This document shows, piece after piece, positions 104 to 9,542 of a stretch of DNA of 9,987 nucleotides. The stretch is from a bacterium (lineage in GTDB: Bacteria; UBA3054), in assembly GCA_017538635.1 (NCBI GenBank), contig JAFYIM010000290.1, forward strand, positions 1 to 9,987, in the 5' to 3' direction. The notes beneath the pieces were generated by a model. The model made no database searches. It saw only the letters and a list, made by a program, of their open reading frames with translations, and was not told the DNA's origin. The first letter of the stretch is position 1. Every line of letters starts with the position of its first letter. The position numbers and the translations under genes were made by a program.

Positions 104-406
104 ATGTCTTTATCGTTGAAAACGCCTTGGGAAGTATCTATGGAGATCGCCGGTCGATTGAAAGCTAAGAGGCTGGCCAGGAATCTGACTCAGCAAGGGC
201 TGGCCGCGAGAGCGGGCATGAGCATCGGATCTCTTAAACGCTTTGAAAAGACGGGGCAGATATCCTTCGCTTCCCTTTTGAACATCGCTTTGGTCTTGGA
301 CTGCCTGGACGAGTGTTATTCCTTGTTCAAGGAAGATCCGAAGCCCAGGAGCTTGTTTTATGAAGAGCCCGAGAGAAAAGAGAGACGGAGAGGAAAATTA
401 AAATGA
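104..406 (+). CDS. hipB: XRE-family regulator, HipB-like antitoxin
   Basis: This 100-aa protein is a small DNA-binding regulator of the Cro/C1 (XRE) family. The helix-turn-helix lies at about residues 17-65, with the recognisable LTQQGLAARAGMS turn and a following SLKRFEKTG recognition helix. It ends in a very basic tail (ERKERRRGKLK). The start at 104 has an AAAGGA ribosome binding site at 91-96. Met13 is a possible alternative start but has no comparable site. The stop overlaps the next start as ATGA, so the two genes are translationally coupled. Its HipA-like partner makes a HipB role likely: neutralising the kinase and repressing the operon. That role is inferred from family and context; the sequence itself shows only the DNA-binding domain. 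Confidence 0.85.
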   Translation: MSLSLKTPWEVSMEIAGRLKAKRLARNLTQQGLAARAGMSIGSLKRFEKTGQISFASLLNIALVLDCLDECYSLFKEDPKPRSLFYEEPERKERRRGKLK

Positions 407-1569
407 ATCTGAAAGTCTTTTACAATGCTTATGGAGAGCGCCGGCTCATGGGGCTTCTGTCCCAAAGAGAAGGCCGCATTTTTTTCGAGTACGCGCCGGA
501 TTTTTTTAATTTCGGGTTGGAAGTCTCGCCTTTCAAACTGCCGCTGCGGCCGGGGCTGTTTGAAGGAGATCCGATGTTTGCCGGCGGGCTGTTCGGAGTT
601 TTCAACGACAGTCTTCCGGACGGCTGGGGATGTCTGCTGCTGGATCGCCAGCTTATGCGGAGAAACATCTCATATAACGAGATCGGTCCTATCGACAGGC
701 TGCGGTTGATAGGCAAAGATCCCTTCGGAGCGTTGGAATACGAGCCGGCGGAGGAAGGCGCGGAGGAAACAATAAAGATAATCCTGGATTCCTTGGCGCG
801 CGAGGCCGACAAGATCCTGGTGGGACGCTCCCAGGAAATGCTGGACGAATTGGTGGCGCTGAACGGATCTTCGGGTGGCGCCAGGCCGAAGATAACGGCG
901 CTGGTATCGGATGACAAAAGCAAGATCGTTCAAAACAGCAGGGCTGTTCCGGACGGATTTTCATCCTGGATCATAAAATTCTCCAATAAGAGAGACAGGA
1001 AGGATCTGGGGCTGCATGAATACGTCTATTCCCTGATAGCGAAAAAGGCCGGCATAAAAATGACGGAAACATATCTTTTCCCTTCTAAAAACAGCAGCGG
1101 GCATTTCGGAACAAAGCGCTTCGACCGGGAAGGCAATCAAAAGATCCACATCCATTCCGCCAGCGGGTTGCTGCATGCTGATTTCAGGATACCGTGTTTA
1201 GATTATGCAAGTCTGCTTAGGCTGACGCAGCTATTAACGAAAAATCAGCAGGACATTGAGCAGATGGTCCGCTTGATGATCTTTAACGTAAAAGCGGGAA
1301 ACAAAGATGACCACAGCAAAAATTTCACCTTCCTCCTTGACAAAGCGGGAGAGTGGCATCTGTCCCCCGCCTACGATCTGACGAGATCCTCTGGCATAAA
1401 CGGCGAGCAGACGGCCATGGTCAACGGCAAGGGATGCGGCATAACCGACGAAGATCTCATCAAGGAAGCCCAAAGATACAATGTCTCTGCGGGAAAGGTC
1501 AGGGAAATGATCGCGCAAACGGAAGACGCGCTGGCGGATTACGACAGGCTGATGAAGGAGCTGAGATGA
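403..1569 (+). CDS. hipA: HipA-family serine/threonine kinase (toxin)
   Basis: This 388-aa protein has the full HipA layout: an N-terminal HipA_N/couple region (about 1-110) and a C-terminal kinase-like HipA_C region (about 150-385). Visible motifs are SSGGARPK at 156-163 (the P-loop-like segment holding the regulatory serine in this family), FGTKRFDR at 235-242, the catalytic loop NKDDHSKNF at 300-308 (D302 the likely catalytic Asp), and SPAYDL at 321-326 (D325 the likely metal ligand). In E. coli, HipA phosphorylates glutamyl-tRNA synthetase and stops growth; the target here cannot be read from sequence. The gene overlaps the XRE regulator by 4 nt, the usual toxin-antitoxin arrangement. All catalytic motifs are present, so it looks active. 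A non-toxic metabolic regulator of the same fold is possible. Confidence 0.92.
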   Translation: MNLKVFYNAYGERRLMGLLSQREGRIFFEYAPDFFNFGLEVSPFKLPLRPGLFEGDPMFAGGLFGVFNDSLPDGWGCLLLDRQLMRRNISYNEIGPIDRLRLIGKDPFGALEYEPAEEGAEETIKIILDSLAREADKILVGRSQEMLDELVALNGSSGGARPKITALVSDDKSKIVQNSRAVPDGFSSWIIKFSNKRDRKDLGLHEYVYSLIAKKAGIKMTETYLFPSKNSSGHFGTKRFDREGNQKIHIHSASGLLHADFRIPCLDYASLLRLTQLLTKNQQDIEQMVRLMIFNVKAGNKDDHSKNFTFLLDKAGEWHLSPAYDLTRSSGINGEQTAMVNGKGCGITDEDLIKEAQRYNVSAGKVREMIAQTEDALADYDRLMKELR

Positions 1570-6029: not shown

Positions 6030-6038
6030 TGCGATAAT
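6030..6038 (+). promoter_or_regulatory. Extended -10 promoter for the riboswitch transcript
   Basis: TGCGATAAT at 6030-6038 is an extended -10 (TGn plus GATAAT). No convincing -35 lies 16-18 bp upstream, which extended -10 promoters tolerate. It places transcription start at about 6044-6046, immediately before the 5' strand of riboswitch helix P1 at 6047. That fit supports it. Confidence 0.55.
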
Positions 6039-6046
6039 GGAGGTGA

Positions 6047-6131
6047 CCTATTAAGAATGCGCGAGAGACAAGCTCGTTGACCGCATAGCAACCTGCGAAC
6101 TTTTGTAAGGTGCTAAAGCTTGACCGATAGG
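6047..6131 (+). ncRNA. SAM riboswitch (SAM-I superfamily, P4-less)
   Basis: This RNA element senses S-adenosylmethionine. By hand, P1 is CCTATT (6047-6052) with GATAGG (6126-6131). After the conserved AAGA, P2 is ATGCG (6057-6061) with CGCAT (6082-6086), then CGAG (6062-6065) with CTCG (6073-6076), and TTGA (6077-6080) supplies the UGA side of the kink-turn. The P2 loop CAAG (6069-6072) pairs with CTTG (6119-6122) as the pseudoknot. AGCAACC and AGGTGCTAAA (6108-6117) are the conserved SAM-core strings, and P3 is ACCT (6091-6094) with AGGT (6108-6111). There is no room for P4, which points to the SAM-I/IV or SAM-IV type rather than classic SAM-I. L3 CTTTT (6100-6104) could pair with AAAAG (6136-6140) as the second pseudoknot of those types. 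Confidence 0.86.
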
Positions 6132-6176
6132 CGAAAAAAGAAGAACGCCCGTCGGTGACGATGGGCGTTTTTCTTT
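6123..6176 (+). terminator. Riboswitch expression platform: terminator and antiterminator
   Basis: A 10-bp stem, 6145-6154 with 6159-6168, closes a GTGA tetraloop and runs into TTTTTCTTT: a strong intrinsic terminator. Its 5' arm can instead pair with 6123-6133: ACCGATAGGCG with CGCCCGTCGGT (6146-6156), 10 of 11 pairs including one wobble. That antiterminator consumes the whole 3' strand of P1 (6126-6131). SAM binding should stabilise P1, release the terminator and switch the downstream gene off, the standard logic of SAM-I-type switches. Confidence 0.85.
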
Positions 6177-6227
6177 GGCCTTCTTATTAGGGATCCGAAA
6201 TATTAAAACCTAATGTAAGGAGGAAAA

Positions 6228-6596
6228 ATGAAAACCTTATCTTTTACGGAAACGTCCGTTGGAAAAAGCATAACGCTCATCGCCAGCAAACCGCGCATTG
6301 CGGACGGATGTTGGCATGTTATCGACTGGAAGAAGGCCGCCGAGATCATCCGTAAACACAAACCGAAAAAAGCCGAAGTCGGAATGCCGGAAGGCTGGGA
6401 GATCACCAAGGCGGTAATTTTTGAAAACGGAAAACTCAAAAACCCCTTAACGCCGATGATAACTTCCTGGGGAACTTTCGTGCTGCGGCTGGACGGCAGC
6501 AACGTCTATCATCTGTGCTTCAAGAAAGCCAAAAATCCAAAGAGCAGCTATTATAGAGCCTGGCCCAAGCGTTTTGCCAAAAAGCTTGCGGAATAA
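6228..6596 (+). CDS. Small basic protein of unknown function under SAM control
   Basis: I do not recognise this 122-aa protein. It has no signal peptide or membrane segment and is probably cytosolic. It is strongly basic, with 19 Lys and 5 Arg against about 10 acidic residues, and its C-terminal 25 residues (KKAKNPKSSYYRAWPKRFAK) are especially so. A WHVIDWKKAAEIIRKH stretch at 29-44 looks helical, and VIFENGKL and WGTFVLRLDG look like beta strands, so it is probably a small alpha/beta domain. Only Cys28 and Cys97 are present. The start has a consensus TAAGGAGG at 6216-6223, 4 nt before the ATG. It is the first and apparently only gene behind the SAM riboswitch terminator, so it should be expressed when SAM is low. 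A role in methionine or SAM metabolism is inferred from regulation alone. Confidence 0.78.
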   Translation: MKTLSFTETSVGKSITLIASKPRIADGCWHVIDWKKAAEIIRKHKPKKAEVGMPEGWEITKAVIFENGKLKNPLTPMITSWGTFVLRLDGSNVYHLCFKKAKNPKSSYYRAWPKRFAKKLAE

Positions 6597-6661: not shown

Positions 6662-7591
6662 ATGAAAGAGGGGACGATAAAATTCGTGTCTAGCGTGAAG
6701 ATAGCTTCGCGCTGGGGCATATCCGACCGTAGAGTAAGAGTTATGTGCGAAAAAGAACAGATTCCCGGAGCGGAACGCCAAGGAAAGCTCTGGAAGATCC
6801 CCGCTGACGCAAAAAAGCCCCTTGACGGCCGCAGCCTGCGCGGCCTGGGCATCCCCTCTTCCTTGCGCGCGCTGTTTTCGGAAGTTGACGCGCTGAAGGA
6901 AAAGCTTAGAAAGGCCCGCCCACTGACCGAAGGCGAGAGAGGTCGTTTGCGCGAAGCCTTCCTTGTTGACTACACCTACGCCTCAAACGCCATCGAAGGC
7001 AACACGCTAACTTTGAGCGAGACCGCTATGGTTTTAGCCGGCATGACGGTGGGCAGAAAGCCCCTGAAGGATCACCTGGAAGCTATCGGGCACAGAGACG
7101 CATTCTGTTTCCTGGAAGAATTCGTTTCCTCCGGCGATCCTGTGTCCGAGCTTTTTGTCCGTCAGCTGCATTCCCTCGTCCTCGCCGACAAGCCTCAGGA
7201 TAAGGGCGCCTACCGCAGCCTTCCCGTCATCATAACAGGCGCCTCTCACACGCCGCCCCAGCCGTACCTGATCAAACCTCTGATGGAGGATTGGGTGCGT
7301 GATCTTAAAAAAGCGAAAAAGCATCCCTTGGTGACCGCCGCGCTCTTCCATATCCGTTTCGAAGCGATCCATCCCTTCATAGACGGGAACGGCCGCACCG
7401 GCCGGCTTTTGGCAAACTTCACGCTGATGAAAGCGGGCTATCTTCCCGTCAGCATAAAGTACGAAGACCGCATGAAATATTACGCCGCCTTCGACGCCTA
7501 TCACAAAAACAACAGTACGGTCCCGATGATAGCGCTCTTCGCCGAAGCAGAACGGGAGCGCCTGAAAGAATATTTGAATATAATCTGTTAA
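6662..7591 (+). CDS. Fic-domain protein with N-terminal helix-turn-helix
   Basis: This 309-aa protein is a Fic-family enzyme, a group that transfers AMP or another nucleotide moiety to Ser, Thr or Tyr of target proteins. Residues about 8-48 form a MerR/excisionase-like helix-turn-helix (SVKIASRWGISDRRVRVMCE). The inhibitory motif SNAIEGN at 108-114 fits S/TxxxEG, so it is a self-inhibited class II type. The Fic core is complete, with HPFIDGNGRTGR at 237-248 (His237 catalytic), and the flap region is near ITGASHTPP (191-199). I chose ATG 6662 over an in-frame TTG at 6620: the extra 14 residues are translated from the repeat region and precede the conserved domain. No clear ribosome binding site is seen before 6662. 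Targets are unknown. A flavodoxin gene follows in the same operon. Confidence 0.88.
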   Translation: MKEGTIKFVSSVKIASRWGISDRRVRVMCEKEQIPGAERQGKLWKIPADAKKPLDGRSLRGLGIPSSLRALFSEVDALKEKLRKARPLTEGERGRLREAFLVDYTYASNAIEGNTLTLSETAMVLAGMTVGRKPLKDHLEAIGHRDAFCFLEEFVSSGDPVSELFVRQLHSLVLADKPQDKGAYRSLPVIITGASHTPPQPYLIKPLMEDWVRDLKKAKKHPLVTAALFHIRFEAIHPFIDGNGRTGRLLANFTLMKAGYLPVSIKYEDRMKYYAAFDAYHKNNSTVPMIALFAEAERERLKEYLNIIC

Positions 7592-7604: not shown

Positions 7605-8069
7605 ATGAAAGTTTTGGTTGCCTATTTTTCTGCGGAGGCGGGCAGGACCGCCGCCGTGGCCGAAGTTATCGCGGACGCCATCAGCGCGAGCATCTTTGAG
7701 ATTAAGCCCGCCCAGCCCTATTCCAAAGCCGACCTTCGCTGGATCAATCCTTTCGCCCGCTGCAACAAGGAAAAATTCGGCAAGAAGGAAGTGCCGGTTG
7801 GAAATAGGATCGAAAACTTTTCCGATTACGACACGGTCTTTCTGGGCTTCCCCATTTGGTACGGCTGCGCGCCGAACGTCGTCAACACTTTCTGCCAGGG
7901 CTACGACTGGAGCGGTAAGCGCGTTTTTATTTTCGCGACTTCCGGCGGAGGCGGCATGGGCAAGAGCGCCGAAAAGCTTTCGCCCTATATGCCAGGCGCA
8001 ACGATCGCCGGCGAGAAGCTGGTGAAAAAGCCGGAAGAAGTCAAAAATTGGCTTGAAACGGTCCTGTAA
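7605..8069 (+). CDS. Flavodoxin-family protein
   Basis: This 154-aa protein is a flavodoxin-like FMN-binding electron carrier or small NAD(P)H-dependent reductase, cytosolic. The FMN phosphate loop follows the first strand: VLVAYFSAEAGRTAAVAE at 3-20. The second FMN contact is GFPIWYGCAPNVVNTF at 81-96, and the third is VFIFATSGGGGMGKS at 106-120. Length and motif order fit the Flavodoxin_4 group common in gut anaerobes. AAAAGGAG at 7591-7598 gives a strong start at 7605, 13 nt after the Fic stop, so the two genes should be co-transcribed. Why a Fic protein and a flavodoxin would share an operon is not evident; the flavodoxin may simply be a passenger. Confidence 0.87.
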   Translation: MKVLVAYFSAEAGRTAAVAEVIADAISASIFEIKPAQPYSKADLRWINPFARCNKEKFGKKEVPVGNRIENFSDYDTVFLGFPIWYGCAPNVVNTFCQGYDWSGKRVFIFATSGGGGMGKSAEKLSPYMPGATIAGEKLVKKPEEVKNWLETVL

Positions 8070-8228: not shown

Positions 8229-9542
8229 ATGAAAAAAGCTTTGACAGAGGTCATATGCGAATTTTATGACAATGGTCTGCCGGATGGAATTGTGCCGCGC
8301 GACGTTGAATATGTGGAAAAACTCCGGGCGGCGACCGTCATTAAAGGTATGCGCCGCACGGGAAAAACCTTTGTAACATATGAGCGAATCGGACAATTAA
8401 TAAAATCAGGCGTGCCGCTTGGCTGCATAGTGCATATCAATTTCGAAGATGACAGATTACGCGACCTGAAAGTTTCCGACTTGCGCTTGATTGATGAGAT
8501 CCATGCAGAATTATATCCTGAATACAGCAAGGAGAAATGTTGGTATTTTCTGGATGAACTCCAGAAGGTGGAAGGTTGGGAAACTTACGCTAGGCGTATC
8601 GTGGATTCAAAGCGCATTCAACTTTGCCTGACGGGTTCATCTTCCAAGCTGCTTTCTGAGGAGATAGCCACCGAGATGCGAGGCCGCTCCGTACCGATAG
8701 AAGTGTTTCCTTTATCATTCGCGGAATATTTGCGTTTCAACGGGATTCTGAAACAACCGCCCCGCCTGGGGTTTACTCCGCGTCTGAAAGGCGTGTTACG
8801 CAAGGCGATTCGCGAATATCTTGAGCGTGGAGGTTTCCCGGATGTGCAGGATGTTTCACCGCGTATGAGAGTTGCGATTCTTCAGGGCTACGTTGATGCT
8901 GTTCTTTACCGCGACGTTATTGAGCGACACAGAATAGCCAGCACTCAGGCCCTCCGTTACACGCTGGATTGTTTGTTCCACAATTATGCTCGCAAGCTTT
9001 CAACGAGAAATATCTCAAATGTTTTGAAAAACATTACTATTTCCGCTAACCGTGAGAGCATATCAAATTACATTGACTGGCTTGCGGACGCATATCTCGT
9101 CTATCCGGTATCAGTAATGTCAGATTCTCCCGCGGTGAAGCGGGTGAATCCGGAAAAGTATTATCTTATCGACACAGGGCTTATACGCGCTATGAGTGTA
9201 AAGAGCGATTCCGAGAACGGATGGCTCTTGGAAAACCTCGTGTTTATGGCGCTTAGGCGCGGCCTAAACAGGATAAAATATGTTTCCAATTCAGACGGAA
9301 CTGAAGTTGACTTCCATGTCCTCAACATGGTGACGAAGAAACGCAGGCTCATACAGGTTGCCTGGACAATAAACGACCAGGAAACTTTAAATCGCGAAAA
9401 GGCGGCGTTGGAGCAGGCTCAAAAGACCCTTCACATAGACGATTGCGTTATCGTTACCTGGGACGACGAAGCGGAACTCGAATCCGGAATAAAAGTTGTT
9501 CCCGTCTGGAAGTGGCTTTTGCAGGAAAATTCGGTTGATTGA
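8229..9542 (+). CDS. AAA-type ATPase with DUF4143 domain
   Basis: This 437-aa protein has the usual build and length of the ATP-binding/DUF4143 family. Walker A is GMRRTGKT at 40-47, the Walker B Asp-Glu is WYFLDE at 105-110, and the sensor-like LTGSSSKLL is at 134-142, followed by GRSVPIEVFPLSFAEYL typical of the group. The C-terminal DUF4143 region (about 200-390) has YLIDTGL at 312-318, ENLVF at 335-339, EVDF at 359-362 and IQVAW at 375-379; these resemble a PD-(D/E)xK nuclease core, here with Gln376 where nucleases often have Lys. The family's function is not settled; defence, DNA transactions and mobile-like behaviour are suggested. It stands alone with its own promoter and a palindromic operator. 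AAAGAGG at 8217-8223 precedes the start. Confidence 0.92.
   Translation: MKKALTEVICEFYDNGLPDGIVPRDVEYVEKLRAATVIKGMRRTGKTFVTYERIGQLIKSGVPLGCIVHINFEDDRLRDLKVSDLRLIDEIHAELYPEYSKEKCWYFLDELQKVEGWETYARRIVDSKRIQLCLTGSSSKLLSEEIATEMRGRSVPIEVFPLSFAEYLRFNGILKQPPRLGFTPRLKGVLRKAIREYLERGGFPDVQDVSPRMRVAILQGYVDAVLYRDVIERHRIASTQALRYTLDCLFHNYARKLSTRNISNVLKNITISANRESISNYIDWLADAYLVYPVSVMSDSPAVKRVNPEKYYLIDTGLIRAMSVKSDSENGWLLENLVFMALRRGLNRIKYVSNSDGTEVDFHVLNMVTKKRRLIQVAWTINDQETLNREKAALEQAQKTLHIDDCVIVTWDDEAELESGIKVVPVWKWLLQENSVD

What the first reader, a model, noticed from the sequence alone, without database searches (positions are those of the whole stretch)
6047..6176. Complete SAM riboswitch with terminator/antiterminator in front of an unknown gene
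P1, two-part P2 with a UGA kink, P3, the loop pseudoknot and the conserved AGCAACC and GGTGCTAAA strings can all be paired by hand. The 3' strand of P1 is also one arm of a 10-of-11-bp antiterminator that excludes the 10-bp terminator. Such a full switch normally guards methionine or SAM genes. Here it guards a 122-aa basic protein I cannot place, which would make it a new member of the SAM regulon.
Basis: partly seen in the sequence, partly recalled or inferred. Interest (0 to 1): 0.75.

Follow-up and report, generated by a model that had tools for sequence, protein, structure and literature searches.

The report
Phage-type SAM riboswitch lacking one arm
An RNA switch that should shut a gene off when the cell has plenty of S-adenosylmethionine sits before a small unknown protein of a ruminant-gut bacterium; the switch lacks one of the four usual arms, and its closest relatives found so far lie in phage and predicted viral sequences before small unknown genes.

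Summary
In detail: window 6045-6133 matches Rfam SAM (RF00162) at 55.0 bits (cut-off 44.4); terminator and 10-of-11 antiterminator are where stated.

It is not a standard S-box: the P4 arm is missing. A covariance model trained on 27 viral aptamers without P4 scores the window at 94.1 bits; six other SAM hits score 33-62. I found the type in 47 IMG/VR contigs and Ruminococcus phage NatCom_28274; 13 of 26 pairs show two-sided changes. Bacteria were sampled far less (384 genomes).

The 122-aa protein is a distant member of another unnamed phage family (profile match 98.6%; 60 shuffles at most 16.9%). Switch and gene occur in the same 3 of 8 family genomes, with empty sites in three relatives. 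It is the only RF00162 hit in those three genomes; no MetE or MetH domain was found in the eight.

Best reading: a SAM-I variant of viral lineage working as a transcriptional OFF switch. SAM binding and protein function are untested.

The parts
6030..6038 (+). extended -10-like promoter element TGC-GATAAT just upstream of P1
   Evidence: read directly; a -10-like box also precedes P1 in L001-L003 and, by eye, in many viral loci; not tested statistically, and the promoter scan did not report it
6047..6131 (+). P4-less SAM-I (S-box) aptamer: P1 6047-6051/6127-6131; P2a 6057-6061/6082-6086; P2b 6065-6067/6073-6075; P3 6087-6093/6109-6114; pseudoknot 6069-6072/6119-6122
   Evidence: RF00162 55.0 bits; model R1 of viral P4-less aptamers 94.1 bits; 26 pairs counted on 30 distinct relatives; coordinates checked
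6123..6133 (+). 5' arm of antiterminator (contains the P1 3' strand)
   Evidence: 10 of 11 pairs with 6146-6156; favoured by 5.4-8.0 kcal/mol over the aptamer once the partner strand is out, in window and L001-L003
6146..6156 (+). 3' arm of antiterminator, overlapping the terminator 5' arm
6143..6177 (+). intrinsic terminator: stem 6143-6154/6159-6170, GUGA loop 6155-6158, U-rich tail
   Evidence: GNRA loop GUGA or GUAA in all four loci of alignment A5
6179..6223 (+). second, post-terminator hairpin that buries the Shine-Dalgarno sequence (6179-6191 with 6209-6223; SD 6217-6223)
   Evidence: predicted fold -14.6 kcal/mol against a mean of -8.1 for single-base shuffles; SD mostly paired in 24 of 27 loci folded
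6228..6596 (+). gene of the 122-aa basic protein, remote member of the phage VFDW-KAA family
   Evidence: 15 clusters among 5.8 billion proteins; phage tblastn E 5e-4; hhalign 98.6%; dN/dS 0.13-0.30
6662..7591 (+). Fic-domain gene (weak N-terminal HTH match, under Pfam's cut-off), next gene in window and L002, absent from this place in L001 and L003
   Evidence: Pfam Fic E 1.6e-21; synteny
7605..8069 (+). Flavodoxin_4 gene; directly follows the 122-aa gene in L001 and L003, so possibly co-regulated
   Evidence: Pfam E 1.6e-40; synteny

Best explanation
The element is a variant SAM-I (S-box) riboswitch without the P4 arm, belonging to a group found so far mainly in viral contigs. It most likely works as a transcriptional OFF switch. 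High SAM: SAM holds P1 (6047-6051/6127-6131) together, the terminator 5' arm stays free, the terminator forms and transcription stops near 6177. Low SAM: the P1 3' strand is taken by the antiterminator (6123-6133/6146-6156), RNA polymerase reads on, and the 122-aa protein (and probably the genes behind it, Fic and/or flavodoxin) can be made once a second hairpin that hides the ribosome-binding site opens. Switch and gene form one cassette, present or absent as a unit between the ADP-ribosylglycohydrolase gene and the Fic/flavodoxin genes of a ruminant-gut lineage; both parts have phage relatives, so acquisition from mobile elements is likely. Shown by computation: aptamer pairing, absence of P4, platform anatomy, viral relatives, protein homology, co-occurrence, empty sites. 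Inferred: SAM binding, OFF direction in the cell, phage origin, co-transcription of downstream genes.
For: RF00162 above cut-off; the only RF00162 hit in each of G001-G003. P4 absence: R1, trained on 27 viral sequences without the window's clade, gives 94.0-94.5 bits to window and L001-L003, against 33.3-61.8 for six other SAM hits; on 30 distinct aptamers 98.7% of 773 cells paired, 13 of 26 pairs with two-sided changes, 0 of 500 shuffles as high. In L083 (4 of 5 pairs) and L086 (3 of 5) the far strand in the terminator does not complete P1, while the near strand does (5 of 5). By my own mapping, 22 of the 23 conserved SAM-I nucleotides listed in PMC3764141 (passages) are kept, using the T. 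tengcongensis sequence printed in PMC5393176 (passages); U4 is C. Platform: 51 of 51 terminators, 49 of 51 antiterminators; folding energies fit an OFF switch. Cassette: same 3 of 8 family genomes, empty sites in G004, G005, G008. Phage homology of the protein.
Against: No binding or termination was measured. In SAM-I the ligand is reported to bring about P1/P4 stacking (PMC4971091, passages), so an aptamer without P4 might bind more weakly or differently. The window's terminator is so stable that terminator plus aptamer wins at equilibrium even without ligand (-50.6 against -44.0 kcal/mol), so the switch would have to be kinetic. The pseudoknot is not in the folding model. The viral bias is partly one of sampling: only the viral collection was scanned by pattern; of bacteria, 384 genomes related to G002, where one more genome, G150, has five copies. 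No switch locus holds a relative of the 122-aa protein besides the window's own clade (0 of 53), so joint phage origin is not shown. The window's own genome is not held.
Confidence: 0.78

Rival explanations
1. SAM-ON switch. P1 is closed by the far repeat CGAUGGG in the terminator 3' arm (6159-6170), and the antiterminator stem is the aptamer's P4. SAM would then hold the antiterminator and switch the gene on.
For: cmscan itself aligned L002 and L003 (and viral loci L071, L072) this way, with P4 made of the antiterminator, at 60.4-64.2 bits. Of 51 platforms 38 can pair all 5 P1 bases with the terminator 3' arm, hardly fewer than the 41 that can with the near strand (some counts are too low because of where I started P1).
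Against: That fold is 7.6-13.6 kcal/mol worse than terminator plus near P1 in window, L001 and L002 and 4.7 worse in L003. The far strand leaves the polymerase only at or after the U-tract (inference). In L083 and L086 the far strand completes only 4 and 3 of 5 pairs, while near P1 is intact. Two near-identical strands are expected in any such OFF switch, since both must pair with the terminator 5' arm. In L073 cmscan aligned no P4 at all.
Confidence: 0.06
2. An ordinary S-box whose P4 is merely degenerate, with no special lineage: one more member of the host's methionine/SAM regulon.
For: It passes RF00162. S-boxes exist in the same phylum in front of what reads as threonine synthase (L010, L011).
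Against: R1 separates it sharply from those (94 against 37-42 bits). In 384 relatives only G001-G003 and G150 exceed 80 bits, all other listed hits being 65.5 or less. MetE/MetH domains in 0 of 8 family genomes, and no Rfam match in the 8 metK loci scanned.
Confidence: 0.1
3. A hitchhiking relic: the switch came in with a mobile cassette and no longer matters.
For: Patchy presence (3 of 8); the guarded protein is lineage-restricted (15 clusters).
Against: Aptamer, antiterminator and terminator are almost unchanged between window and L003 although synonymous sites differ at dS 0.75; the P3 length change keeps pairing; the protein is under purifying selection.
Confidence: 0.08
4. The true target is the downstream flavodoxin, as reductase partner of MetH.
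For: In L001 and L003 the flavodoxin gene follows the 122-aa gene at under 50 nt.
Against: MetH activation domain 0 of 8, MetH N-terminal domain 0 of 8. A close flavodoxin homologue (80% identity or more) is present in 7 of 8 genomes, four of them without the switch.
Confidence: 0.04

Closest known systems
SAM-I (S-box) riboswitch, RF00162
   Same: P1, kink-turned P2, P3, loop pseudoknot, conserved CAACC/GGUG core, a G-C pair where the consensus has the lone J3/4-J4/1 pair, terminator/antiterminator platform
   Different: no P4 arm, so three helices plus pseudoknot instead of a four-way junction; guards small genes of unknown function here and in viral contigs
SAM-IV riboswitch, RF00634
   Same: also lacks P4 compared with SAM-I (PMC6890682, passages)
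   Different: SAM-IV has a four-nucleotide turn in P2, P5 and a second pseudoknot; cmscan reported RF00162 for this element
SAM-I/IV variant, RF01725
   Same: shares the SAM-binding core (PMC6890682, passages)
   Different: lacks the P2 internal loop and PK-1 (PMC2864571, PMC6890682, passages); both are present here
P4-less S-box of Ruminococcus phage NatCom_28274 (PV036439.1 44047-44129)
   Same: same aptamer type, 104.9 bits with R1
   Different: guards a different ~100-aa protein, XTK83981.1, with an annotated DNA methyltransferase gene two genes further on, opposite strand
Phage VFDW-KAA small-protein family (for example XNZ85207.1 of Stenotrophomonas phage S72)
   Same: homologous to the 122-aa protein over residues ~28-120
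   Different: no SAM riboswitch in the 30 phage loci scanned (two of them, L039 and L040, are only weak relatives); 23-40% identity to the window protein for the eight phage sequences aligned with it

Membership tests
SAM-I (S-box) riboswitch RF00162 | covariance-model score above gathering cut-off | tested here: met
   55.0 against 44.4 bits
SAM-I (S-box) riboswitch RF00162 | P1, P2a/P2b with kink-turn, P3, loop pseudoknot | tested here: met
SAM-I (S-box) riboswitch RF00162 | P4 arm between J3/4 and J4/1 (four-way junction) | tested here: not met
   only two bases, AC, stand where P4 should be (A6 columns 79-80); hence filed as a variant, not a standard member
SAM-I (S-box) riboswitch RF00162 | conserved nucleotides of the ligand pocket, kink-turn and pseudoknot | tested here: met
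   22 of 23 listed in PMC3764141 kept by my own mapping, U4 is C
SAM-I (S-box) riboswitch RF00162 | binds SAM and rejects SAH | not testable with these tools
   needs in-line probing or ITC
SAM-IV riboswitch RF00634 | P5 hairpin and PK-2 pseudoknot 3' of P1 | tested here: inconclusive
   cmscan reported only RF00162 at gathering threshold; PK-2 not searched for specifically
SAM-I/IV variant RF01725 | P2 without internal loop, no PK-1 | tested here: not met
   kink-turn and PK-1 present
P4-less viral S-box group (defined here) | high score with a model built without the window's clade | tested here: met
   94.1 bits
Phage VFDW-KAA protein family (defined here) | significant profile-profile match along most of the length | tested here: met
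   98.6%, 104 columns; 60 column shuffles at most 16.9%, reversed 0.1%
Phage VFDW-KAA protein family (defined here) | same fold | not testable with these tools

The most novel reading that the evidence does not exclude
Phages and related mobile elements carry their own subclass of SAM-I riboswitch, stripped of P4, that lets them read the host's SAM level and release small accessory proteins when SAM is short. In one phage group the switched gene lies tail to tail with DNA methyltransferase genes, users of SAM, which suggests a defence or anti-restriction programme tied to failing methylation. The window shows such a module settled in a bacterial chromosome; its three relatives with the module have no other SAM-I riboswitch.
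Probability: 0.35. Interest if true: 0.8.

Novelty: new variant of a known kind. Interest (0 to 1): 0.62.

Why it matters
SAM-I is described as a four-way junction in which SAM drives P1 onto P4 (PMC4971091, passages). A natural form without P4, seen in 30 distinct aptamers and more, would show what the minimal SAM pocket needs and gives a ready set to test. A virus-borne SAM sensor in front of small unknown genes would also make testable a plain question: why do phages want to know the host's SAM level? My searches of the open library returned no paper whose listing, or whose passages where I looked, describe such a group; most subscription papers are not held and several listings were cut at 12-20 of many, so this is weak evidence of novelty.

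Tried and rejected
SAM-ON reading: rejected on energies, order of transcription and loci L083/L086. MetH-flavodoxin reading: rejected. Named family for the 122-aa protein: no Pfam, no NCBIfam (window and two relatives), no PADLOC (window and one relative); over all 16 family members only a sub-threshold Pfam WW_1 match in 3, best E 0.018, and weak PHROG matches, phrog_21750 (unknown function) in 10, best E 0.0053. PDB profile search: one match, E 0.6, not significant. Plasmids: best E 4 for the 122-aa protein, none for its phage homologue at E 0.1, none for one member of the viral ~100-aa family at E 0.001. Viral contigs with the narrow protein profile: none confirmed. Search of 53 switch loci for relatives of the 122-aa protein: none. 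Search for the VFDW-KAA family in 44 phylum genomes: only G001-G003. Naming the bacterial lineage by metK: the nearest named records are called only 'bacterium' (best 120 listed). First energy run with constraints had P2b placed one register off and is replaced; the near-P1 constraint for L003 was misplaced, also replaced. In one search the P1 count for L074, L082 and L096 is too low because their P1 starts with a four-base CCAT, and for L073 the terminator picked is the later SD hairpin.

Full report
WHAT IS THERE. One Rfam family hits the window at gathering threshold: RF00162 SAM at 6045-6133, 55.0 bits (cut-off 44.4), E 9.5e-11. Downstream is an ORF of 122 aa with a good Shine-Dalgarno sequence (6217-6223, ATG 6228).

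IS THE GENE REAL AND LINKED TO THE SWITCH. Fifteen protein clusters in 5.8 billion sequences match, and a profile search found the same fifteen. Three species genomes carry it: L001-L003, ruminant-gut MAGs called only 'bacterium'. Each has RF00162 just upstream (55.0, 60.4, 64.2 bits), and it is the only RF00162 hit in each genome. dN/dS is 0.13-0.30 in the six pairwise comparisons. In the family (8 genomes) switch and gene occur in the same 3. Of the other five, G004 shows ADP-ribosylglycohydrolase then flavodoxin directly; G005 and G008 show ADP-ribosylglycohydrolase, Fic, flavodoxin; the G007 contig starts inside Fic; G006 has no close flavodoxin. The left flank of L003 and those of G005/G008 agree closely up to TCATA, and the sequence around and after the window's stop codon (CGGAATAATATAAGG) reappears at their empty site. 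So switch and gene come and go together. Flavodoxin homologues of 80% identity or more are in 7 of 8 genomes, so flavodoxin is not what the switch is tied to.

METHIONINE CONTEXT. In the 8 family genomes metK is found in 8, MetE (PF01717) in 0, MetH N-terminal domain (PF02574) in 0, MetH activation domain (PF02965) in 0; each family rang in 7-10 of the 14 control genomes. No Rfam match was found in the 12 loci around metK (8) and flavodoxin (4). These are MAGs, some contigs are cut, and other methionine synthases were not sought. In the phylum (44 genomes) RF00162 occurs in 6; of the three outside the family two sit before what I read as threonine synthase, the third (48.1 bits) before an unknown ORF.

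P4 IS MISSING. The window has only AC between the pseudoknot strand and the C that pairs with G6118. cmscan placed the P1 3' strand differently in different relatives because the terminator 3' arm repeats CGAURGG. I looked for relatives without that ambiguity. A 22-base P2 pattern found three IMG/VR contigs, all RF00162 by cmscan; in L073 cmscan aligned no P4 at all. Three more patterns brought the count to 35 contigs after dropping L077 (chance match) and L104, L107, L108 (not of this type, or too short to tell). In one search, whose pattern says nothing about the region behind GGTGC, 21 contigs matched: 18 without P4 (12 distinct aptamers), two with P4 (L104, L107), one too short to tell (L108) (my reading). 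A fifth pattern, which does fix the P4-less junction, gave 44 contigs, 12 of them new. On 30 distinct aptamers (39 places) the structure has 98.7% of cells paired, 13 of 26 pairs with changes on both sides, 0 of 500 shuffles as high on any measure, and slid versions at 37% or less. P1, with the near strand, is paired in 100% of cells. The pseudoknot never varies; the patterns fixed letters of it, so this says little.

INDEPENDENT TEST. R1 was built from 27 viral aptamers, none from the window's clade. It gives window 94.1, L001 94.1, L002 94.5, L003 94.0 bits, and 61.8, 47.7, 41.6, 36.8, 34.3, 33.3 to L104, L107, L011, L010, L012, L108. Not in the training set either: 12 of 12 new contigs (82.7-101.8 bits), L110 104.9 and L111 86.5 bits. 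In 384 genomes related to G002, 46 have a match at E 0.001 or better; only G001-G003 and G150 (five copies, 86.6-97 bits) exceed 80 bits, all others listed being at most 65.5. E-values of R1 are rough, and over 40 genomes the filters are stricter.

HOW IT WORKS. Energies (pseudoknot not modelled): up to the P1 3' strand the aptamer fold is within 0.4 kcal/mol of the best; once the terminator 5' arm is out, the antiterminator beats it by 5.4-8.0; with the full terminator, aptamer plus terminator is -44.4 to -50.6 against -43.6 to -46.7 for the antiterminator. L003 alone prefers the antiterminator at full length. This is the pattern of a kinetic OFF switch. Of 51 distinct aptamer-plus-platform sequences 51 have a terminator-like hairpin and 49 an antiterminator of 7 pairs or more. 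The ON reading needs a fold at -37.0 to -39.7 kcal/mol; its P1 is complete in 38 of 51 against 41 of 51 for the near strand, and falls to 4 and 3 of 5 in L083 and L086, where the near strand is complete.

SECOND GATE. After the terminator a hairpin buries the SD sequence in 24 of 27 loci folded, window included (single-base shuffles as control). How it is opened is unknown.

WHAT THE VIRAL SWITCHES GUARD. Of 35 viral loci (several near-copies), 23 have the same ~100-aa family behind the switch, 11 have singletons, one has no ORF by my rule. Seven of these proteins were scanned; none has a Pfam family above cut-off. Ruminococcus phage NatCom_28274 has the switch unannotated at 44047-44129 and a family member, XTK83981.1, behind it. 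Behind that, on the opposite strand, lie a gene that I read as a DNA cytosine methyltransferase (recalled PCQ motif; annotated 'hypothetical protein') and an annotated DNA methyltransferase. Relatives of these two lie near 16 of 37 viral switch loci, 15 of them with the first one 373-614 nt from the aptamer and always on the opposite strand; in the control, 33 stretches of phages with the VFDW-KAA gene (28 places, five fetched twice, and about half the bases), 1. Several of the 16 are near-copies, so this is one phage group, not 16 events.

THE PROTEIN. tblastn against 50,697 phage records gave Stenotrophomonas phage S72 XNZ85207.1 at E 5e-4, 33% identity. From it I built a phage family (24 sequences). 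hhalign to the window's family: 98.6%, P 4.8e-16; 60 column shuffles at most 16.9%, reversed 0.1%. The nearest phage member aligned, L067, is 40% identical. The phage family has no PHROG at E 0.01 and only chance-level Pfam and NCBIfam matches (best E 0.06 and 0.015). 30 loci (27 IMG/VR, L033, and the weaker relatives L039 and L040) hold no SAM riboswitch. So the switch and the gene both have phage kin, but not together in what I could see.

LITERATURE. Passages only: PMC6890682 (SAM-IV lacks P4), PMC2864571 (SAM-I/IV variants lack the P2 loop; manA and wcaG RNAs in cyanophages), PMC3764141 (conserved SAM-I nucleotides), PMC4971091 (P1/P4 stacking), PMC2258182, PMC3766115, PMC5393176, PMC5753348. 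Other papers were seen as search listings only.

VERDICT. The anatomy of a riboswitch is real; it is a P4-less variant of SAM-I with its closest kin in viral sequences, new to me and to the searches I could run; OFF direction likely; SAM binding, protein function and the reason phages carry it remain open.

Noticed in passing
window 6179-6223; L071-L102: A second hairpin after the terminator hides the Shine-Dalgarno sequence in 24 of 27 loci folded, many with a TAGGNA-like stretch in the stem or loop (by eye).
   Followed up: partly
L071, L072, L075, L079, L080, L091, L092, L094, L098, L099, L103, L105, L106, L109, L110: The switched viral gene lies tail to tail with a gene that I read as a DNA cytosine methyltransferase (recalled motif, no family search), in most cases with a second DNA methyltransferase relative behind it.
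   Followed up: partly
   Followed up: partly
PV036439.1 44010-44114: The deposited annotation of Ruminococcus phage NatCom_28274 places a short hypothetical CDS (XTK83980.1) over the riboswitch.
   Followed up: no
L010, L011: In two other genomes of the phylum a strong S-box (93.6 and 84.8 bits) stands before what reads as threonine synthase; P4 present by eye.
   Followed up: no
L012: RF00162 at 48.1 bits before an unknown 118-aa ORF in G027.
   Followed up: no
L127 and L137: Two viral aptamers have a much longer P3 (aptamers of 115 and 118 nt against about 83).
   Followed up: no
L059, L065, L066; L043: ROOL RNA and, in L043, a type II hammerhead ribozyme lie close to the phage VFDW-KAA gene.
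   Followed up: no
window 104-1569, 6662-7591, 8229-9542: The window carries a HipA-type gene with an HTH partner, a Fic gene and an AAA_14/DUF4143 gene around the cassette.
   Followed up: no
alignment A1, first 14 residues: The N-terminus of the 122-aa family comes in different versions (MKTLSFTET, MKKRIV, MKKRIF), in P0008 and P0009 combined with a body close to the window's.
   Followed up: no
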